Shown in pieces: positions 70 to 16,700 of a DNA stretch of 64,000 nt. How positions within the stretch are numbered: position 1 is the first letter of the stretch; the number at the start of each line of letters is the position of its first letter. Both the position numbers and the translations under genes were made by a program. Source of the stretch: Stagnihabitans lacustris (lineage in GTDB: Bacteria > Pseudomonadota > Alphaproteobacteria > Rhodobacterales > Rhodobacteraceae); contig NZ_JAPDGS010000002.1 in NCBI RefSeq assembly GCF_025950525.1, positions 186,001 to 250,000 on the forward strand, read 5' to 3'. A model generated the notes under the pieces. It worked only from the letters and a program-made list of their open reading frames with translations, ran no database searches and was not told the DNA's origin.

Positions 70-79
70 GGCCTTGTTC

Positions 80-1177: not shown

Positions 1178-1178
1178 C

Positions 1179-1625
1179 GTGCTGAACTGGCTGACACGAC
1201 ATTCCGAGGCGCTGGAGGGGCTGGGCGGCCTTGCCACCGCCTTTGCCACCGTCACCGCGCTGATCGTGATCCCCTACCAGATCGCCCAGTCCGACCGCAT
1301 CCAGCGTGACCAGACCGCCCGCGAGATTTACCGCGAGTTTCTGAACCTGACCGTGCAGAAACCGGAATTGGCCAATGCCGACTACTGCGCGTTGACAGAC
1401 CCCAAGGAACAGACCGCCTATGCGGCCTATGTCGAATACCTGCTTTATACGTCTGAACAGATGATCGACACCTCGCCCGACTGGCGCGCGCCGATGGCCA
1501 GCTATCTGGAAGATCACATGGCCTATCTGTGCAGCGAAGGGGTCTGGGACGCGCAATCCCCCGATATCAAGGACCTGGTGGCCGAACTGGCGCTGACTTG
1601 TGAGGCGGAACAGGCCTGCAAATAG
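1179..1625 (+). CDS. Small membrane-anchored protein of unknown function
   Basis: 148 residues, no family recognised. One hydrophobic segment (about residues 13-34, rich in Ala, Thr and Val) near the N-terminus is followed by a charged helical stretch (QSDRIQRDQTAREIYREF) and a mostly helical C-terminal domain with four cysteines. The GTG at 1179 is preferred because AAGG at 1169-1172 is spaced six bases from it; an in-frame ATG at 1158 would overlap the aguA end and lacks a clear ribosome binding site. It sits two bases after the aguA stop and is followed directly by a terminator, so it is the last gene of that transcript. A role in the polyamine locus is only suggested by position. Confidence 0.7.
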   Translation: MLNWLTRHSEALEGLGGLATAFATVTALIVIPYQIAQSDRIQRDQTAREIYREFLNLTVQKPELANADYCALTDPKEQTAYAAYVEYLLYTSEQMIDTSPDWRAPMASYLEDHMAYLCSEGVWDAQSPDIKDLVAELALTCEAEQACK

Positions 1626-1653
1626 GGGCGGCCTGCACCGCCCCCTTTGCTTT
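1625..1653 (+). terminator. Rho-independent terminator after the aguA transcript
   Basis: A 7-bp perfect stem (GGGGCGG at 1625-1631 with CCGCCCC at 1638-1644) and a 6-base loop are followed by CTTTGCTTT. It sits at the stop of the upstream gene and abuts the stop of the convergent aguB, so it separates the two converging transcripts. Confidence 0.75.
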
Positions 1654-2518
1654 ATGCCGCGTCGTGGCGGCTGATCAGCCCATAGGTTTCCGGCCGCCGA
1701 TCCCGCCAGGTGCCCCAGCTTTGGCGGTAGGCGCGGGTGGCCTCAAGGTCGATCCGGGCGATCAGATAGGTCTCGTCCACCTTGTTCGCCTCGGCCAACA
1801 TCGCGCCTGTGTGATCGGCGATGAAGGACGATCCGTAGAACGTCATCTCCAGGTTCGGCCCTTTCTCCAGCCCTACCCGGTTTGACGCCACAACCGGCAC
1901 CATATTGGCCGCCGCATGGCCCTGCATGGTGCGCTGCCAGTGGCCCGAGCTGTCAATCTCGGGGTAGCCGGGTTCGGTGCCGATGGCCGTCGGGAACAAC
2001 ATCACCTCGGCCCCCAGGATCGCCAGCGACCGCGCGGTTTCAGGAAACCATTGGTCCCAGCAGATGCCGCAGCCGACCTTGGCAAAGCGGGTGTCAAAGA
2101 CCTTGAAGCCGGTGTTGCCGGGGGTGAAGTAGTATTTCTCCTCATATCCCGTCGCATGGGGGATATGGGTCTTGCGGTAGTTGCCCATCACCGTGCCGTC
2201 GGCGTCGATCATGGCCAGCGAATTGAAGAACGTGTTCCCCGCCGCCTCATAGTAGCTGATCGGCAGCACCACCCCCAACCGCTTGGCCAGGGCCGCGAAA
2301 TGCTGGACCGCGCGGTCAGCCTCCAGCGGTTTGGCATAGCGCTGAAAGCCATAGTCTTTTTCGATGCAGAAATAGGGCGTCTGGAACAGTTCCTGCAACA
2401 GGATGATCTGCGCGCCGTCCTCTGCCGCCGCCGTCACCTGTTCCTCGGCCTTGTGGATGTTGTCGTCCAGATCCCAGGAACAGGCCATCTGCGTGGCGGC
2501 CAATGTCACGATTGCCAT
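1652..2518 (-). CDS. aguB: N-carbamoylputrescine amidase
   Basis: 288-residue nitrilase-superfamily (carbon-nitrogen hydrolase) protein predicted to hydrolyse N-carbamoylputrescine to putrescine, CO2 and ammonia. The Glu-Lys-Cys triad is visible: Glu43 in LLQELFQTPYF, Lys116 in GNYRKTHIP, and Cys153 in CGICWDQWFPE. Length and motifs fit bacterial and plant AguB. There is no signal peptide, so it acts in the cytosol. It is the last gene of the minus-strand operon, 11 bases after the binding-protein gene, and completes the pathway begun by the convergent agmatine deiminase. Confidence 0.93.
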   Translation of the reverse strand: MAIVTLAATQMACSWDLDDNIHKAEEQVTAAAEDGAQIILLQELFQTPYFCIEKDYGFQRYAKPLEADRAVQHFAALAKRLGVVLPISYYEAAGNTFFNSLAMIDADGTVMGNYRKTHIPHATGYEEKYYFTPGNTGFKVFDTRFAKVGCGICWDQWFPETARSLAILGAEVMLFPTAIGTEPGYPEIDSSGHWQRTMQGHAAANMVPVVASNRVGLEKGPNLEMTFYGSSFIADHTGAMLAEANKVDETYLIARIDLEATRAYRQSWGTWRDRRPETYGLISRHDAA

Positions 2519-2529
2519 TTGAACTCTCC

Positions 2530-3540
2530 TCAGTTCATCAGTTTGGTCCAGACCTTGTCGATCAGGGCCGTAGCCTCGGGCGAGCAGGTCGGGATGAATT
2601 CGGGCGCGGGCGCATCCGCCGGCGGGTTGATTTCGGGGGCAGCGGCCAAGGCCGGTTCGATGAACGCCTCGGAGCCCTTGATGCCGTTGGAATAGCGCGC
2701 GTAGTTGGTGATCATCGCGGCGTTTTCCGGAGCCATGACAAAGTTGACCCAGGCTTTTGCGTTGTCGAGGTGCGGCGCGCCCTTGGGCACGGCGACATTG
2801 TCCATCCAGCCGGTGTAACCCTCACGCGGATAAACATAGGCGATGGTGGGCTTTTCATCCCGCGCCCGCATCGCGTAGCCGTTCCAGCTCATCGACACGA
2901 CGGCCTCGCCGGACACCATCAGCTCTTTGGTCTCGCTATCGTAGGATTTCACCCATGCCTTCTGGGTCTCCAGCAACTCCAGCACCCGCTTCATCTCGTC
3001 TGGGTTCTCAGAGCACCGCGGGATGCCCAGATAGCGTTCGGCCATGTTGATCACGTCATTCATGTCGCGCAGCATGTTGATGCGGCCCTTGACGTCATCA
3101 GCGGGGGCGAACAGCACGGACAGCGAGGACGTATCCCCTTTGACCACGGCCGTATCCACGGCAAACGCGGTCGAGCCCCAGGCCCAGGGGGCGGAGTATT
3201 CGCGTTTCGGGTCCCAATAGACCTCGCGCCACTTGTCATCGACATTCACGTAATTCGGCATCGCGAAGACGTCGATCTTTTCAACCATGTCCTCGGCGAT
3301 CAGCACCTGCATCGTGGCATCGCCCGGCACGATGATGTCATAGCCCGCACCGCCAGCGCGCAGCTTGGCGATCATCGTCTCCATGCTGTCATAGCTGTCG
3401 ATATGGACCTTGACGCCGAACTCGGCCTCGAATTTCGCCACCAGATCGGGCGGCGTGTATTCGCCCCAGGTGTAGATGAACAGATCCCCTTCGGCGAAGG
3501 CCGGGGCGGCTGTCAAAAGCAGGATGGCAAGGGCGCGCAT
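2530..3540 (-). CDS. potD: Polyamine-type ABC transporter substrate-binding protein (PotD/PotF family)
   Basis: 336-residue extracytoplasmic solute-binding protein with a signal peptide (MRALAILLLTAAPAFA, cleavage before EGDLF). The mature start, LFIYTWGEYTPPDLVAKFE, is typical of spermidine/putrescine-binding proteins; the WNGYAMRARDE and WMDNVAVPKGA regions also fit. It presumably captures putrescine, spermidine or a related cation in the periplasm for the two permeases encoded just upstream in the operon. The open frame continues to 3909, but the signal peptide and spacing after the permease gene place the start at 3540. The exact ligand cannot be read from sequence; given the flanking aguA and aguB, N-carbamoylputrescine or agmatine are candidates. 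Confidence 0.9.
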   Translation of the reverse strand: MRALAILLLTAAPAFAEGDLFIYTWGEYTPPDLVAKFEAEFGVKVHIDSYDSMETMIAKLRAGGAGYDIIVPGDATMQVLIAEDMVEKIDVFAMPNYVNVDDKWREVYWDPKREYSAPWAWGSTAFAVDTAVVKGDTSSLSVLFAPADDVKGRINMLRDMNDVINMAERYLGIPRCSENPDEMKRVLELLETQKAWVKSYDSETKELMVSGEAVVSMSWNGYAMRARDEKPTIAYVYPREGYTGWMDNVAVPKGAPHLDNAKAWVNFVMAPENAAMITNYARYSNGIKGSEAFIEPALAAAPEINPPADAPAPEFIPTCSPEATALIDKVWTKLMN

Positions 3541-3551
3541 AGGGAGTCCTT

Positions 3552-4352
3552 TCAGGTTTGCTTGCGAGCGATCAGGCCCGAGATGATGACGACAAGGGCA
3601 GAGGCCGCGACCATCAGCGACGACACCGCATTGACCTCGGGCGTGATGCCAAGGCGCAGCATCGAATAGATGTGGACGGGCAAGGTGGTGGAACCGGGGC
3701 CGGACAACATCGACGAGATGATGAAGTCGTCGAGCGAGACGATAAAGGCCAAGAGCCAGCCCGAGATCAGACCGGGGGCCAAAAGCGGCAGGGTGATCAG
3801 GGTGAACCGGCGCCAGGGCCGGGCGTAAAGGTCGGCTGCTGCGGATTCCAGCGCGGGGTCCATCGAGGTCAGCCGCGCGGTGATCGGAAGGTAGGCGAAG
3901 GGGATGCAAAAGGTGGTATGGGCAATGACCAGCGACCCAAAGCCAAGACCCAAGCCCACAGAGGAAAAGAAGATAAGGCTGGCGATGGCGGTCACGATTT
4001 CCGGCACCATCAGCGGAAAGTTCAACACCGCATAGGCGGCGGCGCGGCGGCGCACCTTCATCCGCACCATCGCCAAGGCTGCGGCGGTGGCCATGACTGT
4101 GGCCACACTGGCGGCGATCACGGCCAGAAGGACCGAATTCAGCGCCGCCCCGGCAATCTCCTCATTGGCAAAGACGGCCTGATACCATTGCCACGACAGC
4201 CCATCCAAACGGCTGATCGACCGACCGGAGTTGAAGGAATACAGCACCAGAAACAGGATCGGCGCATAAAGAAACGCCACCGCAAGGGTTGCCGTCAGGC
4301 CAAAGCCCGGCAGGTTGCGGATATCCTTTGACCTTGTGTCAAACAGCGCCAT
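3552..4352 (-). CDS. potC: Polyamine-type ABC transporter permease (PotC/PotI family)
   Basis: 266-residue inner-membrane permease with about six hydrophobic segments. The cytoplasmic EAA loop that contacts the ATPase is seen as the stretch from LESAAADLYARPWRRF to LITLPLLAPGL. It pairs with the preceding permease gene to form the membrane channel of the importer. The ATG at 4352 overlaps the stop of the upstream permease (TGATG), which argues against the in-frame GTG one codon earlier. The binding-protein gene follows 11 bases later, giving the order ATPase, permease, permease, binding protein. Confidence 0.92.
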   Translation of the reverse strand: MALFDTRSKDIRNLPGFGLTATLAVAFLYAPILFLVLYSFNSGRSISRLDGLSWQWYQAVFANEEIAGAALNSVLLAVIAASVATVMATAAALAMVRMKVRRRAAAYAVLNFPLMVPEIVTAIASLIFFSSVGLGLGFGSLVIAHTTFCIPFAYLPITARLTSMDPALESAAADLYARPWRRFTLITLPLLAPGLISGWLLAFIVSLDDFIISSMLSGPGSTTLPVHIYSMLRLGITPEVNAVSSLMVAASALVVIISGLIARKQT

Positions 4353-5218
4353 CACGCGTCCTCCCGTGCGGCACGGCGGGCGATGATGAACAAGGCGATC
4401 AGCGTGACGGCCATCAGGATGGTGGAAAGGGCGGCCCCAAAGGGCCAGTTGCGGCTGCCCTGAAACTGCATCCCGATCAGGTTGCCCAGCATCAGCGTCT
4501 TGCCACCGCCAAGGATGTCGGGTGCAAGGTAGCTGCCGATGCCCGGGATAAAGACCAGAAGCCCGCCCGCAATCAGACCCGGCCGCAAGATCGGCAGGAC
4601 GACCTCAAAGAAGGCCTGACGGCGGTTCGCGTGCAGGTCATAGGCGGCCTCCAGCAGCGAAAAGTCGAACCGCTCGATCGCGGCATACAGCGGCAGGATC
4701 ATGAAGGGCAGGAAGGACGACACCAGCCCCAAGCCGATGGCGAAGTTGTTATAGGCCAAGGGCAACGGCCCGTCAGTCAGGCCGATGGCGTGCAAGGCGC
4801 GGTTGATCGGGCCTTCATCCCGCAGGATCAGCAAAAGCGCGATGGTCCGCACAAGCAGGTTCACCCAATAGGGCACCGTCACCAACATCAGCCACAGCGA
4901 CTTTTGCCCCGCAGGCCTGGTGGCGATGAACCATGCCGTAGGCAGGCCGATGAACAGGCACAGAAGGGTGGCCACCCCTGCTTGCAGCACCGACCGGCCA
5001 AGGATTTGCAGGTAATCGGTGTTGAAGGTCAGCGTGTCATCGAAAATGTCGCGCTCGAACAGCAGCCGGATATAGGCCTCGGATGACGGCTCCCAGATCA
5101 CCCCGCCATATTGTGCCGGGGTCAGCACGGAATACAGCGTGGTGATGGCGATGGGCAGCGCCATGAAGATCAGGATGGTGCCCAGCGACGGGGCCAGCAA
5201 AAGGCGGTGCAGCTTCAT
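4352..5218 (-). CDS. potB: Polyamine-type ABC transporter permease (PotB/PotH family)
   Basis: 288-residue polytopic permease. The first hydrophobic segment follows [15 protein letters not shown], and the EAA loop is visible as [20 protein letters not shown] followed by LPILRPGLI, as expected for contact with the ATPase. Its ATG overlaps the ATPase stop by four bases (ATGA) and its own stop overlaps the next permease start, so the three transporter genes are translationally coupled. PotB/PotH subfamily is assigned by length, order and the long periplasmic loop after the first segment. Confidence 0.92.
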
Positions 5219-6363
5219 GACGCCAGCACCCGGATTGCGCCGGGTTCCGCCCGCAGACAGACGGAATCACCGGGGGCGAAATCCTGCGCCCCGCGCAAAC
5301 CGCCGCGTGGCAGGGTGACGTGCAGGGGCACCGATGCGCCCTCCAGCCGGAACGACAGCTCGTTGCCCATATAGATGCGCTCCGTCACCCGAAGCGGCCC
5401 CAGATCGCCCGGTTGCTGCAGGCCCGCGGGCAGGATCGCCAACCGCTCTGGCCGGATCGCCAATGTCACCTCGGCCCCCAAGTCCCCCTTGGCCGGAACC
5501 ACGCCCAGCCCCTCGGACATCGCGCCCCCTGCGCCAATCCGCGCCGGGATCAGGTTCGCCCCGCCGATGAAATCGGCCACAAAGCGGTTGGCCGGGGCCT
5601 CGTAAATCTCCTCCGGCTTTCCCAACTGCTGCACACGCCCGCCCTGCATCACGGCGATGCGGTCTGACATCGCCAAAGCCTCGTCCTGATCGTGGGTGAC
5701 AAAGACAAAGGTGATGCCGGTTTCGCGCTGCAGCGCCTTCAGTTCGGACCGCATCCGCTGGCGCAACTTGGCATCCAGAGCGGACAAAGGTTCGTCCAGC
5801 AGCAGGATCTTCGGTCCCGGAGCCAAGGCACGCGCCAAGGCCACCCGCTGCTTTTGCCCGCCCGAAAGCTGATCCGGCCGGCGATGCTCCATCCCCTCCA
5901 GCCCCACCAAAGCGACCATACGGGCGACGGTGGCTGCAATCTCGGCCTTGGGTCGCCCCAACATGCGCAGCGCAAATCCCACATTCTGTGCCACCGTCAG
6001 ATGCGGGAACAGGGCATAGGTCTGAAACACCGTATTGACCGGACGATCCTCGGGCGGAAGACCCGCAACGTTGCGCCCGAAAATCGCAATCTCTCCCACG
6101 GTCGGCTGGTCGAACCCGCCAATCAGGCGCAGAAGCGTGGTCTTGCCACAGCCGGACGGCCCCAGCAGGGTGAAGAACTCATTGGACCGGATCGTCAGAT
6201 CAATGCGGTCAAGCGCCCTGTGCGCCGACACCCCTTTGCCATAGGTGCGGCCAAGCCCGGTCAATCGGCATGCGTCTTCCTGATCCTGCAAATCCTGATC
6301 TCCACGAGCTGATGCCTTGGTCTTGGACGATGACCACAAGGCCCGGACCTGTCTTGTCACCAT
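5215..6363 (-). CDS. potA: Polyamine-type ABC transporter ATP-binding protein (PotA/PotG family)
   Basis: 382-residue ABC ATPase that energises the importer. Motifs in order: Walker [10 protein letters not shown] (about 68-76), Q-loop [11 protein letters not shown], signature LSGGQKQR, Walker [12 protein letters not shown], and the switch histidine in [12 protein letters not shown]-terminal TOBE-like regulatory domain follows (about residues 280-382). The first 30 or so residues before [11 protein letters not shown] are unusually long and polar, so the true start could be later, but no better-placed start with a clear ribosome binding site was found. First gene of the five-gene operon. The 449 bases upstream hold its promoter and the edge of the accessory island. 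Confidence 0.9.
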
Positions 6364-6812: not shown

Positions 6813-8258
6813 CTACTTTGCCTTGCGATAGTCCCAAGGCATGTCGAAGGAGGTGTTCCACAGCCCCGCATGCGCCAGCTCCGCGGCGGTGCCTTCTGGG
6901 ACATATGCCTTGGAATATTCCTCGAAGGGCACGGCCAGGCCTTGCACCACCATGGCCTTGCCGATGTCGATGCCACTTACCGTGCAGGTCGCCACAGGGC
7001 GGCGGTAGAGGTCAACCGTATCGGCCTTGCACGAGACCTCTTTCCCGCCGATCGCCTGCTCCAACCCCCGACGTGCAACTTCTCCGCAGTCGAAGGACTG
7101 GCCCGTCGCGTTGATGCAGGGTTGGCCTCGTTCGGGGGCGTCTATGCCGGAGATACGATAGCGCGTGCCCTTGATCTCGATGGTATCGCCGTCGATCACG
7201 CGTGCCGGACCCTCGGCCTCCATCACAACTGCAGTTTCGCCGACGTCCTGGCCGATGTCATCAATCAGGCCTTGCTGGTTCACGTTCACGCTGAACATCA
7301 CCCGGCGCGAGGCTTCGTGGTTTTCGGAGCCATCGGGGTTCATGATCAGCCGGGCTGAGGAATAGCCGATGGCCGCGAGCCTTGCGCTGGCCCAGTCGCG
7401 CGCCTGGGGATCGCTGACCCCGCCGAGGCAGGCGTTCAAGGCGCTCTTGGCGCGCCGCTGCGAGAGGTCGAGGTTATAGAGGTAAGCCCCATTCGCATCC
7501 TGCCCTGGGCGTCCCTCGCTGGAGGCATGGCCCTCGATCTTCAGGTCCGAAAGGTCCAGCCCCGAGGCCCGCAGAGCGCCGACCCAAGACCCGCAGAAGT
7601 CGCGCAGGAAGGAGGTGTCGCGGATCCGGTCCTGACCCACGTCGAACAGCACCTGTTGCGGCAGGGTGATTGTCCCCATCCCGTCAATCGAGCCCCCGGC
7701 CGCGCGGATCTGGTCGCCCAGCGCTGCGTTTAGCCTGTCGACCATCTTGTTCTGGGCATCCGCATTGGCCGCAAGACGCCCGGCCACCCGCTCGGCCGTC
7801 GTATCGCCTCCCTTGACGGCAGACAGCGCGGCCCGAAGCGCCACCTCGTCAGTCACCTCAACTGCGTCTGCCAAGCTGAGCCGTGTCTCGGGGTCCAGCT
7901 TGACCGTGGCTTCCACCAATCGCTGGAAGTCCTCTTCCCGCATGAAGCGGGCATAGTCCTTCAGGTCCTGCGCGACCTTGGGGTCACTGGCATCTACGCC
8001 AGCCTTCCGCAATTCCGCCGCCAAGGCGAAGGTCCCATCCGACAGGCCTGCGATGATGGCGGCTTTCTCGTCAGGCGTCATCTCGGCGATGGCATCGGCG
8101 GCAATCAGGCTGCGCTTTTCGGTGTCGATCTGCCACCAGGTGAAGAGGAGGAGCAGGCAGAAGGACAAGAGGATGAAGGCCTCGGCCACCGTGAGCCCCA
8201 TGACCGCGCCACGCTTGTAGCTGCGATCAAAGCCACGTCCGCCGTCGGTCTGTGCCAT
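6813..8258 (-). CDS. MotB/ZorB-like stator protein: TM anchor, OmpA-like domain and C-terminal staphylococcal-nuclease domain
   Basis: About 481 residues (numbers here count from the first of two tandem Met codons; the second, at 8258, fits the AGGAGG site better). One TM segment (about 22-44) follows a basic N-terminus. Its AEAFILLSFCL aligns with the MotB ADFMTAMM segment, placing Glu27 at the proton-binding Asp of MotB. After a helical linker comes an OmpA/MotB peptidoglycan-binding domain (about 196-327: IEGHASSEG, NLDLSQRRA, NHEASRRVMF). Residues about 353-475 are a nuclease domain: DGDT (357-360), Arg369, Asp374, Glu377 and Arg421 match the metal ligands and Arg/Glu/Arg catalytic set of staphylococcal nuclease. 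Four cysteines in the domain (381, 392, 411, 426) suit an oxidising periplasm. Last gene of a four-gene operon. Role in phage defence is inference. Confidence 0.85.
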   Translation of the reverse strand: MAQTDGGRGFDRSYKRGAVMGLTVAEAFILLSFCLLLLFTWWQIDTEKRSLIAADAIAEMTPDEKAAIIAGLSDGTFALAAELRKAGVDASDPKVAQDLKDYARFMREEDFQRLVEATVKLDPETRLSLADAVEVTDEVALRAALSAVKGGDTTAERVAGRLAANADAQNKMVDRLNAALGDQIRAAGGSIDGMGTITLPQQVLFDVGQDRIRDTSFLRDFCGSWVGALRASGLDLSDLKIEGHASSEGRPGQDANGAYLYNLDLSQRRAKSALNACLGGVSDPQARDWASARLAAIGYSSARLIMNPDGSENHEASRRVMFSVNVNQQGLIDDIGQDVGETAVVMEAEGPARVIDGDTIEIKGTRYRISGIDAPERGQPCINATGQSFDCGEVARRGLEQAIGGKEVSCKADTVDLYRRPVATCTVSGIDIGKAMVVQGLAVPFEEYSKAYVPEGTAAELAHAGLWNTSFDMPWDYRKAK

Positions 8259-8268
8259 CATGCCCTCC

Positions 8269-9402
8269 TCAGGCGGGTTTCTCTTCGGTCAGCTTCGCAG
8301 AGGCGGCCTCGACTTGGGCCGTAGCCGAGGCCAGCCGATTGGTCAGAGTGCTCAGCGTCACCTCGGTCTTGATCATCGAAGCACGGTTTGCCTCGTCGAA
8401 GGCCTGCAATCCGGTGTCCAGCCGCCGTGTCGTGTCCGACAGCGACTGATCCAGCCTGACCGCCGCTTGGGTAAACGACCGCGACAGGGCGGCACCCGAG
8501 CTTTCGACCTCCTCCGCCACGCTGCGGATGCGGCGTGAGAGTTGCCCCACGAGGTCGGTCATCTGGTTTGTCTGCTGGTGCAGCGCCGCGTTGGCCTGCT
8601 CGTTCACGCCCCGCGCCGTGGCCTGGGTCGCGGAAAGCCCGCGCATCGTATGCGCCAGCTCTTCAAACGAGGTGCCCATCTGCCGCAGGGCTCCTTCTGA
8701 CGAGCCCTGAACTGACGAGCGGATGGCCTCGACGGCCGCCGTGGTCTGTTCGCGGACGGTCTTCTGCAGCTCTTGATAGAAAAGTCCTGACATGGCGCCC
8801 AACGAGGATTTCACTCCTTCGACAAGCCTGTCTGTCGTATCTGCAAATCGCTGCTCGCGTTCAGCCGCATGCTGCATGCTTTCGACGCCGAAAAGCTTCA
8901 TCTGCTGCAAAGCTTGAATCATCTCGGTGCGCAGGCGTCGGGCAGCCTCGTCGATCTCGACCCGGGTTTCGCGTTCGCGTGAGACGATATCCAGGCGGAA
9001 CTGCATCATCAGAACGCGGATGAAGACGCCCACGATGGTCGAGACCAGCGCCACGCCAAAGCCCGAGATGACCTCGGGGATCAGTTTGGCGCGATCCTCG
9101 GCCCCGGCCTCGATGACGAAGTAAAGCGTCACGGAAAGGCTGGTCAGGGTGAAGAGAAAGCCGAGGTAATAGGCGTTGTCGCCGATCACCTCGGGCTCCA
9201 GCCGCAGGGCGGTGGACGTATAGGCCATGACGGCATAGGCCGTCAGGATCGCGGCCGAATAACCCGCCGTGATGAAGGGATGGACGCCCAGGACCTTGAG
9301 CGCGATGCCGCCGCCGACCCCCGCGACAAAGGCCAGAAGCAGCACGATCTTGTCCCAGCTTTCCCGGGCGCCGACGTCATGGATCTTTTGCGGCCTGCGC
9401 AT
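8269..9402 (-). CDS. MotA/ExbB/ZorA-like proton-channel protein with long helical tail
   Basis: 377 residues. Four hydrophobic segments (about 18-38, 42-63, 77-98, 109-131); the last, GFGVALVSTIVGVFIRV, resembles the pore-lining helix of MotA, TolQ and ExbB. The remaining 245 or so residues are cytoplasmic, almost entirely helical and coiled-coil-like, with alternating Ala, Gln, Glu and Arg and no globular motif. This is the ZorA arrangement: a stator channel with a long intracellular tail. The start at 9402 is one base after the upstream gene stop (9404-9406). The partner stator gene begins eight to eleven bases after its stop. No close named family could be assigned without a profile search. 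Confidence 0.8.
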   Translation of the reverse strand: MRRPQKIHDVGARESWDKIVLLLAFVAGVGGGIALKVLGVHPFITAGYSAAILTAYAVMAYTSTALRLEPEVIGDNAYYLGFLFTLTSLSVTLYFVIEAGAEDRAKLIPEVISGFGVALVSTIVGVFIRVLMMQFRLDIVSRERETRVEIDEAARRLRTEMIQALQQMKLFGVESMQHAAEREQRFADTTDRLVEGVKSSLGAMSGLFYQELQKTVREQTTAAVEAIRSSVQGSSEGALRQMGTSFEELAHTMRGLSATQATARGVNEQANAALHQQTNQMTDLVGQLSRRIRSVAEEVESSGAALSRSFTQAAVRLDQSLSDTTRRLDTGLQAFDEANRASMIKTEVTLSTLTNRLASATAQVEAASAKLTEEKPA

Positions 9403-9403
9403 A

Positions 9404-10222
9404 TCACAGATCCCCGAGAGAGCGGAGCTTGGGCAGGTTGGCGCCCTGCAGCTCGAAATAGCGGATCCAGAAGTCCTCAACCGCCTTGGGGTCCTTCAGC
9501 GTTGCGACCTCGCGGGGGACGGCGAAAATCGTGACATCGACCCGGTCCAGCGTCCGGCCCAGCCGGGCAAAGGCAGGGGAGGCCTGGAAGCTTTGCCAAT
9601 CCTCGCCGCGGTAAAAGCTCATCGCATCGCTGTTCTGCAACAGGTCCGAGACAAGAATCAACTTACGTGGCCCCGCATAGGTCAGGAAGCCCGGCGTGTC
9701 CGCGACCAGTGCTTGCAGGCTCTCCATAATCGGCGAGGTCTTGGCACCCGAGGCCGAGATCATCCGGTCAAGATTAACTTGCAGTGGGTCTTGGAAGCGT
9801 TCCTGGAAGCGTTTCTGCACCAGGGTGACGTTCTGGGTCAGGCTGCTGACATCCTTGACCGAGGCGGGTTTGCAGAGCGGATCGGTCGCGCCCCAAAGCG
9901 CCTGATCCTCGCTGACCACACCCATTGTGAACTGGGTTCCCACGGCCGCCCCGGCGAATTCGCCCTCCAGATATTGCCGCAGCTGTGCAGTTTGCGCCGG
10001 CGCCATCGGGTCGGTCAGGTCGAATAGGATCGCGGTCTCGGCCACCGGTCCTGACAGCGGGCAAAGTGCTGCGTCGACAGCCATAGTCGAGGCGGTGCGG
10101 CTCATCCACCAACCAGCGCCGCCGAGCAGCCCCAGGGCGACCACGGCACCCAAGGCATAGGGCAGGGGGCTGCCGCCCTTGCTGCGGCGGCTGCGGAAAT
10201 TGGATGGACGGCGGCGGGCCAT
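9404..10222 (-). CDS. Membrane-anchored, probably periplasmic vWA-like protein
   Basis: 272 residues with a very basic N-terminus (MARRRPSNFRSRRSKGG), one TM helix (about 21-41) and a large domain that should lie outside the membrane by the positive-inside rule. The fold suggestion is von Willebrand A: a first strand ending in AILFDLTDPM (Asp68, Thr70, Asp71, a weak DxSxS-like metal site), a SPIMESLQAL helix near 163-172, and RKLILVSDLLQNSD (Asp193) as the fourth strand. The metal site is not canonical. Two cysteines (54 and 117) could pair. Its ATG overlaps the upstream stop (TGATG). Probably a structural or sensing part of the stator complex. Confidence 0.65.
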   Translation of the reverse strand: MARRRPSNFRSRRSKGGSPLPYALGAVVALGLLGGAGWWMSRTASTMAVDAALCPLSGPVAETAILFDLTDPMAPAQTAQLRQYLEGEFAGAAVGTQFTMGVVSEDQALWGATDPLCKPASVKDVSSLTQNVTLVQKRFQERFQDPLQVNLDRMISASGAKTSPIMESLQALVADTPGFLTYAGPRKLILVSDLLQNSDAMSFYRGEDWQSFQASPAFARLGRTLDRVDVTIFAVPREVATLKDPKAVEDFWIRYFELQGANLPKLRSLGDL

Positions 10223-11631
10223 CAGGAAGACCTCCCCGTCTCTTCGGCGGCTTGGACGACGCGGGCAACGTCGAAGGCTTTGCGGGCCTCTTCGAACTGC
10301 TGGAAGATGTCGCGCACGGCCCCTTCGACGGTGGCAGTCACCTTGGCAGCCTCAGCCTCGGCGGTGTCGCGGCGCGAAGTCTCGATGGCCTGCAGCTTGA
10401 AGGGTGGGAACTTGAAGGCCTTGTCGAAGGACTTCGGCGCAGGCTCGGTGCGAGCCGAGCGATTGGCGTCGCGATAGGTCGCCAAAAGATGGGCGACCTT
10501 GACGTCGCATTGCTCCATGAAGGTCTGCAGATGCGCGCCGAGCGTGCTTTGACCGAATAGGGTGTCGATGGCCTCGCCGATGCCCTGGCGGACTTGCTCG
10601 TTGGCGTCCTGCAGGTCAGCAATCGCCCCGTCCCGCGTCTTGGCCAGGTCGTCCAGCGCAAGGTCCAACTCTGAGACATAGTGATCGCGGGCAACCTTCA
10701 CCGCGCGCTCGACCCTTCCATAGCCCGGATGCGGGTCATCGGTATGCCAGCCCTTGCGGAAGGCGAGCGTCGAGATGATCACCCCAATCACCGCCAGCAG
10801 CCAGGACTCGATCGAGGCCAATTCCACGGGATGCGCGATCAATGCAGGAACCGCCTGCCCCGCCGCCTGTCGCCACAGCACGCCCGCCTCTAGCCCGTCG
10901 CGGAAATGCGCGACACCGAGGTTCATCGTGACCGCAAAGCCCATCCAGGCGAAGACGAACAACAGCCCGCCGAACTTCAGAAACCAGTTCCGGCGGTTGA
11001 TATAGCGCGCCATGTAACCCAAGAGCGCCGAGCCGCCGACATTCACGACCGAGACGATGGCGGCCGCCAGGAGCCCGCCCAAAAGCCCGAATTCGTTGCC
11101 CTGCGAAAAAAGGTAAGAGTTCATCCCGGCCTCGAGCACGATGAGGATGATGGCGAGAGAAAAGACCTTGACCCAGCCCTCGAACTCCTTTGCGGGGCGC
11201 TCCAGCCGGTTGATCGCCCGGTAGCGGCCGCGCCATTTGAACGTGTCGGTCAGCCGCTCACGTGGGCCTTCAATGGCAGATTGCCAGACCTGCACCTGCC
11301 GCCCGAACTCGCCCTTGGCTGTTCCCGCTGCGACCTCCACCTCCTTTGTGGCCGAGCCCGCCCGAGCGAGACGCTCGTTATAGACCCGGCGATTGGTCTC
11401 GAAATTCTCGATCCCCTTGCGGCGGAGCTCCTCGATACGTTCGATGATCCCGGTCTCGATATGGTCGAAGTCCTTGGCATCGGCGGGCGGCTGGTTCTCA
11501 CGGCCACGGGACGAGCCCTGCTCGGCAAGCTTCAGGTCCTTGGCGATCTTCTCGGAATCGATGCTTGGGAAGATGGCAGAGGTCGGGATGAAATCGTCGG
11601 ACCGGAACACCGACTTCAAACGGTCAAACAT
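10222..11631 (-). CDS. Four-TM protein with flanking coiled coils, first gene of the Zorya-like operon
   Basis: 469 residues, family not recognised. The N-terminal 150 residues are charged and helical (IERIEELRRKGIENFETNRR) with no signal peptide. Four hydrophobic segments follow (about 154-174, 181-205, 218-238, 274-290), then a C-terminal helical region (about 305-469). Both soluble ends are predicted cytoplasmic. It opens the operon, with a 220-base gap back to tRNA-Thr that must hold the promoter; no convincing -35/-10 pair was found there. Its stop overlaps the next start. Candidate roles are sensor or effector of the complex; nothing in the sequence decides between them. Confidence 0.7.
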   Translation of the reverse strand: MFDRLKSVFRSDDFIPTSAIFPSIDSEKIAKDLKLAEQGSSRGRENQPPADAKDFDHIETGIIERIEELRRKGIENFETNRRVYNERLARAGSATKEVEVAAGTAKGEFGRQVQVWQSAIEGPRERLTDTFKWRGRYRAINRLERPAKEFEGWVKVFSLAIILIVLEAGMNSYLFSQGNEFGLLGGLLAAAIVSVVNVGGSALLGYMARYINRRNWFLKFGGLLFVFAWMGFAVTMNLGVAHFRDGLEAGVLWRQAAGQAVPALIAHPVELASIESWLLAVIGVIISTLAFRKGWHTDDPHPGYGRVERAVKVARDHYVSELDLALDDLAKTRDGAIADLQDANEQVRQGIGEAIDTLFGQSTLGAHLQTFMEQCDVKVAHLLATYRDANRSARTEPAPKSFDKAFKFPPFKLQAIETSRRDTAEAEAAKVTATVEGAVRDIFQQFEEARKAFDVARVVQAAEETGRSS

Positions 11632-11805: not shown

Positions 11806-11840
11806 GAAAAAGCCGCGCAACCTGTTGAGATTGCGCGGCT
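11806..11840 (-). terminator. Terminator of tRNA-Thr
   Basis: Perfect 10-bp inverted repeat (AGCCGCGCAA at 11811-11820, TTGCGCGGCT at 11831-11840) with a 10-base loop. On the minus strand it is followed by TTTTTCTT. It lies 12 bases beyond the tRNA 3' end and should insulate the island operon from tRNA transcription. Confidence 0.85.
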
Positions 11841-11851
11841 ATTGTGGCGAC

Positions 11852-11927
11852 TGGTGCCGGAGAAGGGACTCGAACCCCCGACCCCATCATTACGAATGAC
11901 GTGCTCTACCAGCTGAGCTACACCGGC
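11852..11927 (-). tRNA. tRNA-Thr (anticodon CGT)
   Basis: 76-base cloverleaf read on the minus strand: acceptor GCCGGTG with CTCCGGC (one T-T mismatch), D arm GCTC/GAGC, anticodon stem CGTCA/TGATG with loop TTCGTAA, T loop TTCGAGT, and encoded CCA. Anticodon CGT reads ACG codons. The accessory island begins just past its 3' end, the usual side for integration of mobile DNA at tRNA genes. Confidence 0.95.
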
Positions 11928-11966
11928 CCTGTCGCCCTGCCAGGCCAAGGCCCGCAGGTTGCGATC

Positions 11967-11995
11967 CGATTAGCAGTCCCGCGCCGGGGTTTCAA
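11967..11995 (-). promoter_or_regulatory. Predicted sigma70-type promoter of tRNA-Thr
   Basis: On the minus strand, TTGAAA (11990-11995) and TAATCG (11967-11972) are separated by exactly 17 bases. The -10 box lies 39 bases upstream of the mature tRNA, leaving a short 5' leader. Confidence 0.55.
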
Positions 11996-12082
11996 GGGCA
12001 TAAATCCGACAACCCGCCCGATCTGCGGCGGGGCTTGCCATCACGCCGTCGCAAGGCCACGCTGGGCCAAAGGGAGACCAAG

Positions 12083-12970
12083 ATGGAACGTATCGGATTT
12101 CTGGGCCTCGGCCTCATGGGTCATGGCATGGCGCATAACCTGGTCACAAAGGGCTGGCCGCTGACGGTGGCCGCGCATCGCAGCCGGACCGCGGTCGAGG
12201 ACCTGGTGGGCAAGGGTGCGGTCGAGGGCTCCATCGCGCAGGTCGCGGGCTGTGACATCGTGGTGCTGTGTGTGACGGGCTCGCCGCAGGTGGAAAGCCT
12301 GGTGCGGCAGATGGCGCCGCATCTGCGCGAGGGGGCCGTGGTGGTCGATTGCTCGACCTCGGACCCGGTTTCGACGGCGACCTTGGCGGCAGAGCTGGCG
12401 ACGCGGGGCGTGACTTTGGTCGACGCACCGCTGTCGCGCACGCCGAAGGAGGCCTGGGCCGGGACGCTGGACGTGATGGTCGGCGCCAGTGACGCGGTTT
12501 TTGCCCGGGTTCAACCGGTGCTTTCGGCCTTTGCCGGCAAGATTGTTCATATCGGCGGGCCGGGCGATGGGCACCGGATGAAACTTCTGAACAATTTCCT
12601 GTCCTTGGGCTATGCCGCGCTTTACTCTGAAGCCCTGGTTCTGGCGCAGAAGGTGGGGATTTCTCCGCCGCGCTTTGATCAGGTGATCCGCGGCGGGCGG
12701 ATGGATTGCGGGTTTTACCAGACCTTCATGGGTTACATGATCGAAGGCAACCGCGAGGCGCACAAGTTCACCTTGTCCAATGCTGCCAAGGATTTGCGCT
12801 ATCTGGAGGCGATGGCCGACGCGGCGGGGGTCGCCAATCCGGTCGGCAACGCGGTCAAGAATTCCTTCGTGGCGGCGCTTGCGACCGGGGGCGCGGGCGA
12901 TGCCGATTACGTGCCGCATCTGCCCCTGTTCGTCGGCCGCGCCAATGGGCTGGACATGGAGCCGAAATGA
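12083..12970 (+). CDS. NAD(P)-dependent beta-hydroxyacid dehydrogenase (3-hydroxyisobutyrate dehydrogenase family)
   Basis: 295 residues. The N-terminus carries the family Rossmann motif GFLGLGLMGHGMAHNL, followed by the substrate-binding CSTSDP strand (family DxSTxxP) and the catalytic-lysine helix GDGHRMKLLNNFLSLG. Enzymes of this group oxidise 3-hydroxyisobutyrate, tartronate semialdehyde or related short 2-methyl or 2-hydroxy acids; which one is used here is unknown. ATG at 12083 follows AGGGAGA by about six bases and is preferred to the upstream in-frame start. Its stop overlaps the next gene by four bases, so the two are coupled. Confidence 0.85.
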   Translation: MERIGFLGLGLMGHGMAHNLVTKGWPLTVAAHRSRTAVEDLVGKGAVEGSIAQVAGCDIVVLCVTGSPQVESLVRQMAPHLREGAVVVDCSTSDPVSTATLAAELATRGVTLVDAPLSRTPKEAWAGTLDVMVGASDAVFARVQPVLSAFAGKIVHIGGPGDGHRMKLLNNFLSLGYAALYSEALVLAQKVGISPPRFDQVIRGGRMDCGFYQTFMGYMIEGNREAHKFTLSNAAKDLRYLEAMADAAGVANPVGNAVKNSFVAALATGGAGDADYVPHLPLFVGRANGLDMEPK

Positions 12971-13743
12971 CCGAGGAGATCCGGGCGCTGTCTATCGAGG
13001 CGCTTTCGGACGCCTTGCAGACCGGCGCGCTGACGGTGGCCAAGGTGCTGCAGGCCTGGGACGCCCAGGCCGACGCCCAAGCGGCCCAAAAGCGGCTGAC
13101 GGGCGATGCGCCCTTTCTGTGCGGTATTCCCTTTCAGGGCAGCGGGTTGGTCGCCGAAAACCTGACCCGCGCGGGGGCGATGGCCACGGACGGCCCTGCG
13201 CCCTTCGAGGTGATCGCAGATTGGGACGGGACCGCCCTGCAAGCGCCCCTGACCTTTCGGCCGAGTTTCGGGCTTTTGCCCCGTCACCCGGGGGAGGGGG
13301 CGTTTCGCGCCCTGTCAGAAGTGCCGGCGGTCCGCGCTCCAAAGCCACGCGACCTGCGCCGCATCCTGCAGCCTGCCAGCCTCCGGCGGTGGGAGGACCC
13401 CGATCAGGTGCCCTTGCCCGTGGCCGCGCAACCGGCCGCGCGCGTGATCGGTGCGGCCCTGCCCTTTACGCTCAGGGGCTATGATGTCACGGAATTCGTC
13501 CCGCCTTGGCCCGACTTCGGCCAGGCCTGGGCCGCCGAGGCACCGGAGGCGCTGGCCTTGCGACCAAGGGCGCGGGCCGACTGGGCCGTGGCGCTGCACG
13601 CCTGCCCCCTTGTCGCTCTGCCGCCAGATATGGCGGGGCTGGTGGCCGCGCTTGGCCTGCCCGCCGCACGGGTGGGCGGCGTGATCCTGGCCGCGCGCTG
13701 GTTCGCCGATGACCTGGTGCTTACGGCTGCGGCTCTGGCTTGA
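12967..13743 (+). CDS. Degenerate amidase-like protein of unknown function
   Basis: 258 residues, starting in an ATGA overlap with the dehydrogenase stop. The N-terminal helix (LSIEALSDALQTGALTVAKVLQA) and the stretch FLCGIPFQGSGLVAENLTRAGAMA resemble the start of amidase-signature enzymes, where LxGIPxxxKD and a later GAxxxGKT normally occur. PSFGLLPRHPG resembles their FGLKPTxGxxPR segment. Between these the whole Ser-rich signature loop is missing, as are the catalytic Lys and the Ser-cisSer pair, so the protein cannot be a working amidase. It may be a shortened structural or binding relative. Its last 23 bases overlap the convergent RND gene. Confidence 0.65.
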   Translation: MTEEIRALSIEALSDALQTGALTVAKVLQAWDAQADAQAAQKRLTGDAPFLCGIPFQGSGLVAENLTRAGAMATDGPAPFEVIADWDGTALQAPLTFRPSFGLLPRHPGEGAFRALSEVPAVRAPKPRDLRRILQPASLRRWEDPDQVPLPVAAQPAARVIGAALPFTLRGYDVTEFVPPWPDFGQAWAAEAPEALALRPRARADWAVALHACPLVALPPDMAGLVAALGLPAARVGGVILAARWFADDLVLTAAALA

Positions 13744-16700
13744 CCCGATAGACCGCGCAATACAGCGCCGGGGCGAACAGCAGCGTGATCAGCGTGCCCG
13801 CGATGATCCCCCCCATCATCGCATAGGCCATCGGCCCCCAAAACACCTGGCGCGAGATCGGGATCAGCGCCAATGAGGCCGCCGCCGCCGTCAACAGGAT
13901 CGGCCGCGCCCGGCTGTCCGAGGCGCCAAGCACCGCCTGCCAGCGTGAGGCGCCCTCCTGGATCAGAACCTCGATTTCGTTGACCAGGATGATCGAATTC
14001 CGGATCAGGATGCCGATCAGCGCCAGCACCCCAAGGATCGCCACAAAGCCCAGGGGCGCGCCCGAGGGCAAAAGTGCGGCGACCACCCCGATCAGCCCCA
14101 AAGGCGCCACGGCCAGCACGATGAACATCAGCCGGAAGCTTTGCACCTGTGCCATGACCAGCGACAGCATGACCAACAGCATGACCGGCACGACCGCGAC
14201 GATGGGGGCCTGGCTTTCGCCAGAGCTTTCCACCGCGCCGCCCGTCACCACCGTGTAACCAGCGGGCAGGGTGGCGACGAATTCCTTCACCTTGGGCCCT
14301 AGCGCGGTGACGATGGTCGCAGGCTGGGCCGAGGTCGCAATCGCGGCCTTGACCGTGATCGTGGGCATCCGGTCTCGGGTCTGGATCTGCGGCTGTTCGG
14401 TCGTCCATTCGATCGTGGCAAAGCTTTGCAACGGGATCGCCACGCCCGAGGCATTGCCAAGCTGCAGGCTTTGCAACCCGGTCAGCGACCCGCGGTCATC
14501 CTCGGCCCCGCGTGCCACCACGTCGATCAGGACGCGGCCGTCGCGCAGTTCCGTCACAGTGGCGCCATCGTAAAGCGTATACAGCGCCTGGGCCACATCG
14601 GTCTGGGTCAGGCCCAATTGGCGCAACTTGTCCTGATCCAGCACGACGCGGGCGACGCGGGCAGGCTCGGACCAATCCAGACTGACCGCCTTCAGCCGCG
14701 TGTCCCCGGCCACCACCGCCGCAAGGTCGCGGGCATGGTCGCGCAGGACCTGCGGGTCGGGCCCCTGGATGCGGAACTGCACGGGCTTGCCCACCGGCGG
14801 CCCAAGCTCCAGATATTTCGCGAAGACCTCGACGCCGGTCAGGGTCCGGGCATGGGCCTCGACCTTGGCCTTCAGCGCATCGCGCGCGGCCAGATCGGCG
14901 GTCATCACCACGATTTGCCCCATATGCGGCCCGGGGGCCGGCACGTCCAAGGCCAGCACGAACCGCGGGGCCGACCGGCCGACATAGGTCGTCCAATATT
15001 GCGCCTCGTCCTGACGGGCCAGGAAATCATCCAGCCCCGCCATGACCGCATCCGTCCCGGCAAAGGCCGCGTTCTGGCGCAGGGTCACATCCAGGATCAG
15101 TTCCGGCCGGTCCGAGGTCGGGAAAAACTGCTGCTCCACAAAGCGCATCGCATAGACCGACACGCCGAACAGCAGCACCGTCGCCCCGATGGTCAGCCAT
15201 TTCGCCCGCATCACCGCCGTCAGCACGCGGCGAAAGCCCTGCCGCATCCGGCCGACCTTGGCCTGATGATGCGCCATCCGGGCGGGCAAAAGCGAGGCCC
15301 CCAGCAGGGGCGCAAACAGCACCGCCACGACCCAACTGACCACCAGCGAAATCGCGATGACGTAAAACAACGAGATCGTATACTCCCCCGCCTTCGACGC
15401 ATTGAACCCGATGGGGATAAAGCCCGCGACCGTCACCAAGGTGCCCGACAGCATGGGAAAGGCGATTGAGGTCCAGGCATAGCTGGCAGCCTTTTTGATG
15501 TCGTCCCCCGCCTCCAGCCGCGCGATCATGGTTTCGATGGCGATCATCGCGTCATCGACCAACAGCCCCAGCGCGATGATCAGCGCCCCCAGCGAGATGC
15601 GCTGCAGCGTGATCCCCATCAGCTCCATCACGACAAAGGTGATGGCCAGCACCAAGGGGATGGTCAGCGTGACGACCAACCCCGCCCGCATGCCCAACGA
15701 CACGAAACTGACCGCCAGCACGATCACCACCGCCTCGATCAAGGCGCGCAAAAAGTGGCTGACCGAGTCTTCGACGACCTTGGGCTGATCCGAGACCTTG
15801 TGCATCTCGATCCCGACCGGCAGGCGGGCCGCGACCCCTTCCATCAACGATTCAAGCTGGGCGCCAAAGTCCAGGATATTGCCGCCCGCCCTCATGCCCA
15901 CGATCAGCGCGATGGCCGGGGCGCCGTTGAAACGGATCACCGAAGAGGGCGGGTCGACATAGCCCGACGTGACCTCGGCCACATCGGACAGGGCGAAATA
16001 GGTGTCGCCCACACGCAAATTCGTATCCGCCACCGCGTCAACCGAGGTGAATTGCCCCGTGACCCGGACCAGGATCTGTTCCGCCCCGGTGCGCACCATG
16101 CCCGAGGGCACGATGGCGTTTTGCGCGGCCAAAGAGGTCAGCACCGCCGCCTGATCCAGCCCCAAAGCTGCCAGTTTGCGGCTGGAAAACTCGATATGGA
16201 CGACCTGATCCTGGGTGCCGATCAGATCCACCTTGCCGGCATCCTCCAGCCGCAGGATGTCCGAGCGGATCGCCTCTACCCGGTCCTCGACCTCACGCGG
16301 GGTGAAGCCGTCCGAGGTAAAAGCATAGATATTGCCATACACATCGCCGAAATCGTCGTTAAAGCCAAAGCCAGCGAATTCGGCGGGCATCTCGGGGCGG
16401 ATGTCGCTCATCATCTGGCGGACGCGGGTCCAGGTGGCGGGAACCTGCGCGGCCGGCGTGTCGTCGCGCAGGTCGACATAGACCAGAGTCAGGCCCGGAT
16501 AGGTGACGGACCGCGTGTGCAAGAGGCTGCCCAGCTCTTGCAATTTCTTCTCGATCCGGTCGGTGACTTGGGTCGCGGTTTCCTCGGCCGTGGCGCCGGG
16601 AAGAGAGGCCTGGACGATCATCGTCTTGATCGTGAAGGCCGGGTCTTCCTCGCGCCCCAGCCGTGTATAGGAAATCGCCCCGGCCAGGACCGACACCAGG

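What the first reader, a model, noticed from the sequence alone, without database searches (positions are those of the whole stretch)
6813..11631. Zorya-like four-gene membrane system with a nuclease built into its stator
Four minus-strand genes with stop/start overlaps or gaps under 12 bases encode only membrane proteins: a four-TM coiled-coil protein, a TM-vWA-like protein, a MotA/ExbB-like channel with a long cytoplasmic helical tail (the ZorA layout), and a MotB-like TM-OmpA protein. The last carries a complete staphylococcal-nuclease domain. Known Zorya types combine ZorA and ZorB with ZorC/ZorD, ZorE or ZorF/ZorG as separate cytosolic effectors; none of those is here. The stator itself seems to carry the nuclease, and two further membrane proteins replace the cytosolic effectors. 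The set sits next to a tRNA gene in otherwise core genome. An undescribed defence system is a reasonable reading.
Basis: partly seen in the sequence, partly recalled or inferred. Interest (0 to 1): 0.93.

Follow-up and report, generated by a model that had tools for sequence, protein, structure and literature searches.

The report
Membrane motor carrying a periplasmic nuclease
A four-gene bacterial membrane system, found in the same gene order in distantly related bacteria, pairs relatives of a known phage-defence motor with a nuclease domain that is predicted to sit just outside the inner membrane, where it would likely cut invading DNA before it gets in.

Summary
Genes A (4 TM, long helices), B (TM + vWA fold), C (ZorA-like) and D (ZorB-like + SNase) lie in the order A-B-C-D on one strand in all 59 loci where I found all four (57 distinct records), from Rhodobacteraceae to Halomonas, rhizobial plasmids and a Latescibacterota bin. 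The nuclease is exchangeable: of 47 genome-scan loci with C and D, 16 have SNase fused to D, 1 an HNH-type domain, 10 an SNase gene within 1.8 kb, 20 none seen. Two D proteins 90% identical go with SNases 42% identical. D's SNase follows a TM and a peptidoglycan-binding domain, and 13 of 18 separate SNase ORFs have a hydrophobic signal-like stretch, so the nuclease is predicted to be periplasmic, opposite to Zorya's cytosolic effectors. The stator acid is Glu (164 of 167 rows, 3 gaps), not Zorya's Asp. The system is rare (1 of 16 genus, 3 of 295 family genomes), occurs on plasmids, and several flanks hold defence genes that a rough control lacks; the window's own flanks hold none. I judge it a Zorya-related but distinct defence system that attacks incoming DNA in the periplasm. 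Defence is inferred, not shown.

The parts
10222..11631 (-). Gene A: 469-aa protein with four TM segments (residues 152-289) between two long helices (57-141, 304-393); AHFRD invariant and YRDAN nearly invariant in 32 aligned rows; no Pfam, PADLOC or NCBIfam match at E up to 1
9404..10222 (-). Gene B: 272-aa membrane-anchored vWA-fold protein, arginine-rich N-terminus, TM about 20-38, then a predicted periplasmic vWA domain with Cys54 and Cys117 invariant in 28 aligned rows
9407..10054 (-). vWA fold of B (residues 57-272)
8269..9402 (-). Gene C: 377-aa ZorA-like channel subunit with long helical, predicted cytoplasmic tail
9004..9168 (-). Last two TM helices of C (residues 79-133), with Thr85 and Thr122 present in 49 of 49 rows: the predicted polar ring
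6813..8261 (-). Gene D: 482-aa ZorB-like stator subunit, TM + OmpA-like domain + SNase domain
8142..8198 (-). TM helix of D (residues 22-40) with Glu27, present in 164 of 167 family rows (3 gaps); Zorya ZorB has Asp in this helix
7251..7763 (-). ZorB-like region of D (residues 167-337), including the OmpA-like domain (224-315)
6837..7214 (-). SNase domain of D (about residues 350-475) with conserved Asp357, Asp359, Arg369, Asp374, Glu377, Arg421 and four conserved Cys
11852..11927 (-). tRNA-Thr (CGT) next to the operon; collinearity with the best-matching relative ends 44 bp beyond its 3' end

Best explanation
This is a conserved four-gene inner-membrane system (A-B-C-D) whose C and D proteins are relatives of the phage-defence proteins ZorA and ZorB and are predicted to form an ion-driven 5:2 motor, and whose staphylococcal-type nuclease is predicted to lie in the periplasm, where it would likely cut phage or other invading DNA before it reaches the cytoplasm. 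Shown by sequence: the operon and its order; homology of C and D to ZorA and ZorB; conserved SNase catalytic residues; the exchange of the nuclease between fused SNase, separate SNase and HNH-type domain. Predicted by model: the vWA fold of B. Inferred: five C and two D subunits form a channel gated by Glu27 of D against the threonine ring of C; the OmpA-like domain of D engages peptidoglycan when the envelope is disturbed during injection, as proposed for Zorya; ion flow then moves the C tail and the cytoplasmic helices of A; the periplasmic vWA protein B positions or licenses the nuclease; the nuclease, fused to D or exported separately, cuts DNA at the entry site. Because the chromosome is not in the periplasm, a non-specific nuclease could be used there without self-recognition.
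For: Order A-B-C-D on one strand in 59 of 59 loci with all four. A was found beside B in 64 of 67 loci of the genome-collection scan. C matches ZorA and D matches ZorB. D's Glu27 is present in 164 of 167 rows and C's Thr85 and Thr122 in 49 of 49. Nuclease exchange: of 47 scan loci with C and D, 16 have SNase fused, 1 an HNH-type domain fused, 10 an SNase ORF within 1.8 kb of the operon (one truncated and weak), 20 none seen. SNase background: 33 hits in 21 genomes of about 74 Mb together, the window's own included; 0 in 20 control stretches of 20 kb. The arrangement changes at least 20 times on the D tree. D proteins 89.6% and 77.4% identical go with SNases 41.7% and 43.4% identical, one fused and one separate in each pair. 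Periplasmic site: D runs TM, OmpA, SNase; 13 of 18 separate SNase ORFs have a hydrophobic stretch (peak 1.5 or more) before the domain, and four Cys are shared by 32-35 of 36 SNase domains; B has two invariant Cys. Defence: 1 of 16 genus genomes, 3 of 295 family genomes, B in 15 of 385 class genomes, the window's genome counted each time; A on 24 of 72,556 plasmid records, 11 of them conjugative; flanks with a type II RM pair and a CBASS cyclase and AbiEii, against 3 models that I judge generic in a control of similar size.
Against: No experiment exists. 20 of 47 loci show no nuclease fused or nearby (4 of them end within about 400 bases of D or inside it), including four Jannaschia copies, Halomonas, Vreelandella and Paracoccus yeei, so the nuclease may not be essential or a distant one may be used. 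The ten ORFs scanned around the window's operon hold no defence gene. The flank control was placed by hand, not matched genome by genome, the test set includes plasmid loci, and only 25 of its 94 matched models were shown; several of those hit one and the same protein. Phage DNA may cross the periplasm inside a tube and be out of reach. NCBIfam's ZorA and ZorB cut-offs are far from met. Two viral-contig scans found no copy. A's function is unknown.
Confidence: 0.6

Rival explanations
1. A barrier against DNA in general (conjugating plasmids, transforming DNA) rather than against phages: the periplasmic nuclease cuts any DNA crossing the envelope.
For: Same anatomy as the best explanation. Three distant A-B pairs without C-D sit near conjugation-type ATPase genes. 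The system is carried by plasmids, 11 of 24 conjugative, so it could serve in plasmid-plasmid exclusion.
Against: C and D are relatives of an anti-phage motor, in which peptidoglycan binding is proposed to sense injection. Traced flank genes include an RM pair and a CBASS cyclase.
Confidence: 0.15
2. A divergent Zorya type: the motor signals inward through the C tail and the helices of A, and the cell stops growing or dies; the periplasmic nuclease is an accessory.
For: C keeps a long ZorA-type tail and A adds two long helices. 20 of 47 loci show no nuclease nearby.
Against: No ZorC/D/E/F/G model hit in ten flanking ORFs. The D family splits from ZorB2 relatives with SH-aLRT 100 in a quick tree and has Glu for Asp in the TM. 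The recurrence and replacement of the nuclease points to a main role.
Confidence: 0.13
3. A housekeeping envelope or DNA-scavenging machine: a Tol- or Mot-like motor that works on peptidoglycan, with a periplasmic nuclease to digest environmental DNA.
For: OmpA-like and vWA domains occur in envelope machines; uncharacterised TolQ-vWA systems are proposed as force transducers (PMC12204202, passages). Four Jannaschia copies group together on the D tree. In this window the neighbours look like polyamine and efflux genes (by eye).
Against: Rare and patchy, on plasmids, nuclease exchanged between close relatives, defence genes in several flanks.
Confidence: 0.12

Closest known systems
Zorya type II (ZorA, ZorB, ZorE; PMC11890865)
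   Same: MotA-like channel with long cytoplasmic tail; MotB-like subunit with OmpA/peptidoglycan-binding domain; D's only PDB sequence match is ZorB II of S. kujiense (8vvi); a nuclease is the effector.
   Different: TM acid Glu instead of Asp; no ZorE model hit, instead a predicted periplasmic SNase or HNH-type domain on or beside the stator; two extra conserved membrane proteins A and B upstream.
Zorya types I and III (ZorCD; ZorFG; PMC11890865, PMC8565338)
   Same: ZorA and ZorB core.
   Different: No ZorC, ZorD, ZorF or ZorG model hit in the ten flanking ORFs scanned.
SNIPE (DUF4041 + GIY-YIG membrane nuclease; PMC13190303, passages read)
   Same: A membrane-held nuclease that attacks DNA during injection is the closest mechanistic idea.
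   Different: SNIPE's nuclease is cytoplasmic and no motor is described in the passages read. Here the nuclease is SNase or HNH-type and predicted to be periplasmic. A DUF4041 protein is annotated next to the system in S. fredii; whether it is a SNIPE was not tested.
TolQ-vWA force transducers (PMC12204202, passages read)
   Same: vWA protein with one TM next to a MotA/TolQ-type subunit.
   Different: In the family without TolR the vWA protein itself carries the TM aspartate; here B's TM has no acidic residue and a separate MotB-like D is present.
SNase / thermonuclease family (PF00565)
   Same: Catalytic residues conserved in D and in the separate SNases.
   Different: Joined to, or encoded beside, a ZorB-like stator.

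Membership tests
Zorya | ZorA: MotA/ExbB-type channel subunit with long cytoplasmic tail | tested here: met
   PADLOC ZorA2 1.9e-8; hhalign probability 97.2, E 4.5e-11, against 8 ZorA relatives; but NCBIfam ZorA_3 20.5 bits against a cut-off of 250
Zorya | ZorB: one TM plus OmpA-type peptidoglycan-binding domain | tested here: met
   PADLOC ZorB2 8.8e-25; 8vvi 6.3e-7; but NCBIfam ZorB2 58.2 bits against a cut-off of 400. Peptidoglycan binding itself not tested
Zorya | Conserved aspartate in the ZorB TM helix | tested here: not met
   Glu27 in 164 of 167 rows, 3 gaps; 8 of 10 ZorB2-like proteins from other loci show Asp in an SDLM or ADLM motif, one ORF starts behind it and one lacks the motif; these comparison proteins are themselves below NCBIfam's ZorB2 cut-off (best 238 of 400 bits)
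Zorya | Cytosolic effectors ZorC/ZorD, ZorE or ZorF/ZorG in the locus | tested here: not met
   No such PADLOC model at E up to 0.001 in ten flanking ORFs, nor at E up to 1 in A and B; other loci not tested one by one
Zorya | Anti-phage activity | not testable with these tools
   needs phage challenge
SNase (PF00565) | SNase domain with catalytic Asp, Arg, Asp, Glu, Arg | tested here: met
   Pfam 33.9 bits over cut-off 21; in 36 SNase rows D359 36, R369 35, D374 34, E377 36, R421 35 (duplicate loci were not removed); residue roles recalled from S. aureus nuclease
[quoted passage not shown]
   No such Pfam match at E up to 1 in A, B, C or D
TolQ-vWA transducers without TolR (PMC12204202) | vWA protein with acidic residue in its TM helix and no MotB/TolR partner | tested here: not met
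   No Asp or Glu in B's TM 20-38, and D is present
Flagellar MotAB | MotA and MotB family models | tested here: not met
   MotA_ExbB 15.1 bits against cut-off 22.9; MotD, MotS and MotB-type models 14-17 bits against cut-offs of 259 and more
vWA domain | vWA fold | tested here: met

The most novel reading that the evidence does not exclude
An inside-out Zorya: the first motor-driven immune system that destroys invading DNA in the periplasm, with an ion-driven ZorAB-type stator using a glutamate gate, a vWA protein and a 4-TM long-helix protein as sensor and coupler, and an exchangeable nuclease cartridge (SNase or HNH-type, fused or separate) that needs no self/non-self recognition because the host chromosome is not there.
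Probability: 0.4. Interest if true: 0.9.

Novelty: new variant of a known kind. Interest (0 to 1): 0.82.

Why it matters
Zorya showed that a flagellar-type motor can serve immunity, with nucleases recruited in the cytoplasm. This system would show that the same kind of motor also works outward, with the nuclease placed where DNA enters and before it meets the chromosome. That would offer another answer to how a non-specific nuclease avoids self-damage. Two motor-associated families without a known function (A and B) are defined, and the natural exchange of nucleases gives a ready test of which parts matter.

Tried and rejected
Viral origin: scans of viral contigs with A and with B gave no relative.

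Integrative element at the tRNA: no second copy of the 25-base tRNA 3' end in the window with up to 3 mismatches, so the tRNA neighbourhood is a break of collinearity, not a proven insertion.

PDB sequence search with A and B profiles: only rows at E 0.2-1.

Another fused domain in D proteins without SNase: L025, L030, L031, L036 and L038 gave only OmpA, L041 and L043 nothing, L067 two weak coiled-coil-type families. Of genes convergent behind D, L035 and L039 had no Pfam match, L031 DUF2478, L136 and L137 AbiEii.

dGTPase and mad3 PADLOC hits are not counted as evidence: dGTPase is probably housekeeping (inferred from HD and argS matches in the same set); mad3 also hits the control and the window's own ABC ATPase. 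The HamB, HEC-05, TerY and PsyrT hits were not traced to loci; of ten proteins that I tried to trace, three of L009 and one of L052 gave strong hits, those of L010, L019 and L133 weaker or generic ones, and those of L018, L043 and L076 none.
Full report
WHAT IS THERE. Four minus-strand genes at 6813-11631 are real, closely packed and complete. From 5' to 3': A, a four-TM protein with two long helices; B, a TM-anchored vWA-fold protein; C, a ZorA-like channel subunit; D, a ZorB-like subunit that ends in an SNase domain. Pfam has nothing for A and B; C's MotA_ExbB and D's OmpA matches lie below the curated cut-offs; D's SNase is above it. PADLOC gives ZorA2 1.9e-8 for C and ZorB2 8.8e-25 for D. 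NCBIfam's Zorya models match D and C far below their cut-offs. D's only PDB sequence match at E up to 0.01 is ZorB of the Zorya II structure 8vvi.

RELATIONSHIP TO ZORYA. A profile of 11 C proteins matches a profile of 8 ZorA relatives, taken beside ZorB2-like genes, with probability 97.2 over two TM helices and much of the tail. The ZorB2-like genes come, where 43 of 385 genomes of the class had a match and none reached NCBIfam's cut-off (best 238 of 400 bits), so they are relatives, not certified ZorB2. In C, Thr85 and Thr122 are present in 49 of 49 rows; in D, Glu27 in the TM is present in 164 of 167 rows, the other 3 being gaps. In Zorya this position is Asp (D24 and D21; [quoted passage not shown] Of the 10 ZorB2-like proteins outside this system, 8 show the Asp, one ORF starts behind it and one lacks the motif. 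In a quick tree of D without the nuclease part, the family separates from 8 ZorB2 relatives with SH-aLRT 100; the program flags long branches. So C and D are relatives of ZorA and ZorB but form their own branch.

A CONSERVED FOUR-GENE SYSTEM. A scan of 84,980 species genomes with B's alignment gave 67 loci. A was found beside B in 64 of 67, C in 49, C and D in 47. Over the 114 loci longer than 4.5 kb that I then had (67 scan loci, 8 plasmid loci, 16 stretches around genome-search hits, 23 control or empty-site stretches), 59 held all four genes at E < 1e-5, and all 59 have the order A-B-C-D on one strand. In a whole-genome sample of the class, B occurs in 15 of 385 genomes, the window's included; in the loci returned with it, A is present in 13 of the 15 and C in 10. 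Carriers include Rhodobacteraceae, rhizobial plasmids, Halomonas and Vreelandella, Thalassospira, a Methylocystaceae bin and a Latescibacterota bin.

THE NUCLEASE IS A CARTRIDGE. In the 120 listed homologues of D, the precomputed domains show SNase, PF07510 (GmrSD C-terminal; its HNH character is recalled) or neither. Of the 47 scan loci with C and D: 16 SNase fused, 1 PF07510 fused, 10 a separate SNase ORF within 1.8 kb of the operon (L022's is truncated and weak), 20 none seen, 4 of these with the contig ending within about 400 bases of D or inside it. Of 8 plasmid loci opened (of 24 records with A), 5 have a separate SNase gene: before A, after D, or convergent with D. Chance would give far fewer: 33 SNase hits in 21 genomes of about 74 Mb, under 0.5 per Mb, and 0 in 20 control stretches of 20 kb. 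On the D tree (62 system rows: 19 fused SNase counting the window, 8 PF07510 of which 6 are database proteins, 15 separate, 20 none) the arrangement changes at least 20 times (21 with the ZorB2 label); starred branches alone force 8 changes for fused, 8 for none, 7 for separate and 2 for PF07510. Left out of the tree: L022, L023, L051, L053, L073, L079, L131, L137, L139, and ZorB2-like rows L151, L155, L156, L157. L142 was labelled none although the truncated SNase piece lies next door, and L017 although its contig ends there. Of seven pairs that I picked, two join a fused and a separate SNase: D 89.6% against SNase 41.7% identical (P. aerius and P. rhizosphaerae), and 77.4% against 43.4%; in the five pairs that are both fused the two parts differ by 2-16 points. 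The cartridge is therefore replaced, not only split off.

WHERE THE NUCLEASE SITS. In D the order is N-terminus, TM, OmpA-like domain, SNase, so the SNase should be periplasmic, as in MotB-type proteins. Of the 18 separate SNase rows printed (L022 and L142 are the same piece, L139 is a fragment of 78 residues), 13 have a hydrophobic stretch with a peak of 1.5 or more before the domain; many look like Sec signal peptides by eye. SignalP was not run. Of 36 aligned SNase domains, 32-35 share four cysteines and 34-36 the catalytic positions Asp359, Arg369, Asp374, Glu377, Arg421. Roles by analogy with S. aureus nuclease and its need for Ca2+, plentiful outside the cytoplasm, are recalled, not tested. 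B's two invariant cysteines fit a periplasmic vWA domain.

IS IT DEFENCE? For: it is rare and patchy (1 of 16 genomes of the genus; 3 of 295 of the family; the window's genome counted in both); A is found on 24 of 72,556 plasmid records, 11 conjugative; some flanks carry defence genes. I drew 143 of 288 eligible flanking proteins from 49 loci (46 are represented) and scanned them against PADLOC at E <= 1e-15: 94 models matched, the 25 shown including type II methyltransferase and restriction enzyme, CBASS cyclase, HamB, HEC-05, TerY and PsyrT, with several models often hitting one protein. In a control of 144 of 175 proteins from 20 stretches that I placed by hand in related genomes, 3 models matched (mad3 in 3 proteins, mad2 and C3a156 in 1 each), which I judge generic. 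Traced: the RM pair about 0.4 kb behind D on the other strand and a GajB-like helicase about 5 kb behind D in L009 (Pseudogemmobacter), and the CBASS cyclase about 7 kb before A in L052 (Phenylobacterium); AbiEii convergent with D in L136 and L137. In S. fredii a DUF4041 protein lies beside the SNase; DUF4041 is the domain of SNIPE (PMC13190303, passages read). Against: the ten ORFs scanned around the window's operon show no defence gene, the control is not matched, 20 of 47 loci have no nuclease nearby, and nothing has been tested on phages.

HOW IT MOST LIKELY WORKS. By analogy with Zorya, where peptidoglycan binding by ZorB, ion flow and the ZorA tail are needed for protection (PMC11890865; abstract, introduction and discussion read), I propose that envelope disturbance at injection lets D grip the peptidoglycan and opens the C5D2 channel. 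Movement is passed to A's helices and to B, and the nuclease, on D or exported separately, cuts the entering DNA in the periplasm. Each step of this paragraph about the present system is inferred. The main weakness is whether phage DNA is exposed in the periplasm; the periplasmic endonuclease I of E. coli acting on superinfecting T4 DNA is a recalled precedent.

THE PLACE IN THIS GENOME. In the relative with the best match to the tRNA side, of 41 genomes searched, collinearity with the window covers 11808-15547 at 80% and stops 44 bp past the tRNA-Thr 3' end. The query ran only to 16000 and the fetched stretch of the relative ends at 15547, so only the left-hand break means anything. The tRNA end is not repeated in the window.

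KNOWN OR NEW. Searches of the open-licence library listed no paper that I could see to describe ZorAB with SNase or with A and B; the Nature 2025 Zorya paper is not held and was not read. PMC8565338 (passages) adds Zorya III; PMC12204202 (passages) describes TolQ-vWA pairs that differ. I call it a new variant of a known kind: a Zorya-related motor system, probably for defence, that fails two defining Zorya features (TM Asp and cytosolic effectors).

Noticed in passing
L056 6027-8354, L058 4998-7334, L061 10868-12622: A-B pairs without C and D lie near genes for conjugation-type (TrwB/TraG, HerA) ATPases, so A-B looks like a portable pair with several partners.
   Followed up: partly
L042, L044, L045, L046, L048, L059: A-B without C-D in Latescibacterota bins and one Gemmatimonadetes bin; in L042, the one scanned, a DUF3179 gene and an enolase-like gene lie upstream.
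   Followed up: partly
L076 14941-16416: Sinorhizobium fredii plasmid: a DUF4041 protein (the SNIPE domain) is annotated beside the system's SNase, with a CHAT-domain gene and a hypothetical gene upstream of A.
   Followed up: partly
L009 14174-17048: Type II restriction enzyme and methyltransferase genes about 0.4 kb behind D in Pseudogemmobacter bohemicus.
   Followed up: yes
L136 6668-7465 and L137 6767-7564: AbiEii-type nucleotidyltransferase gene convergent with D.
   Followed up: partly
L010 5130-6254: D in Pseudooceanicola marinus reads as two separate ORFs (5130-5858 and 5919-6254), perhaps a decaying copy.
   Followed up: no
L071 6465-10375: Mixta theicola: a B-like gene follows a protein of 528 aa with six hydrophobic segments and an OmpA-family protein, a different arrangement.
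   Followed up: no
window 74-6363: Genes that look like an agmatine/polyamine set: agmatine deiminase-like, amidase-like and a polyamine-type ABC transporter (named by eye).
   Followed up: no
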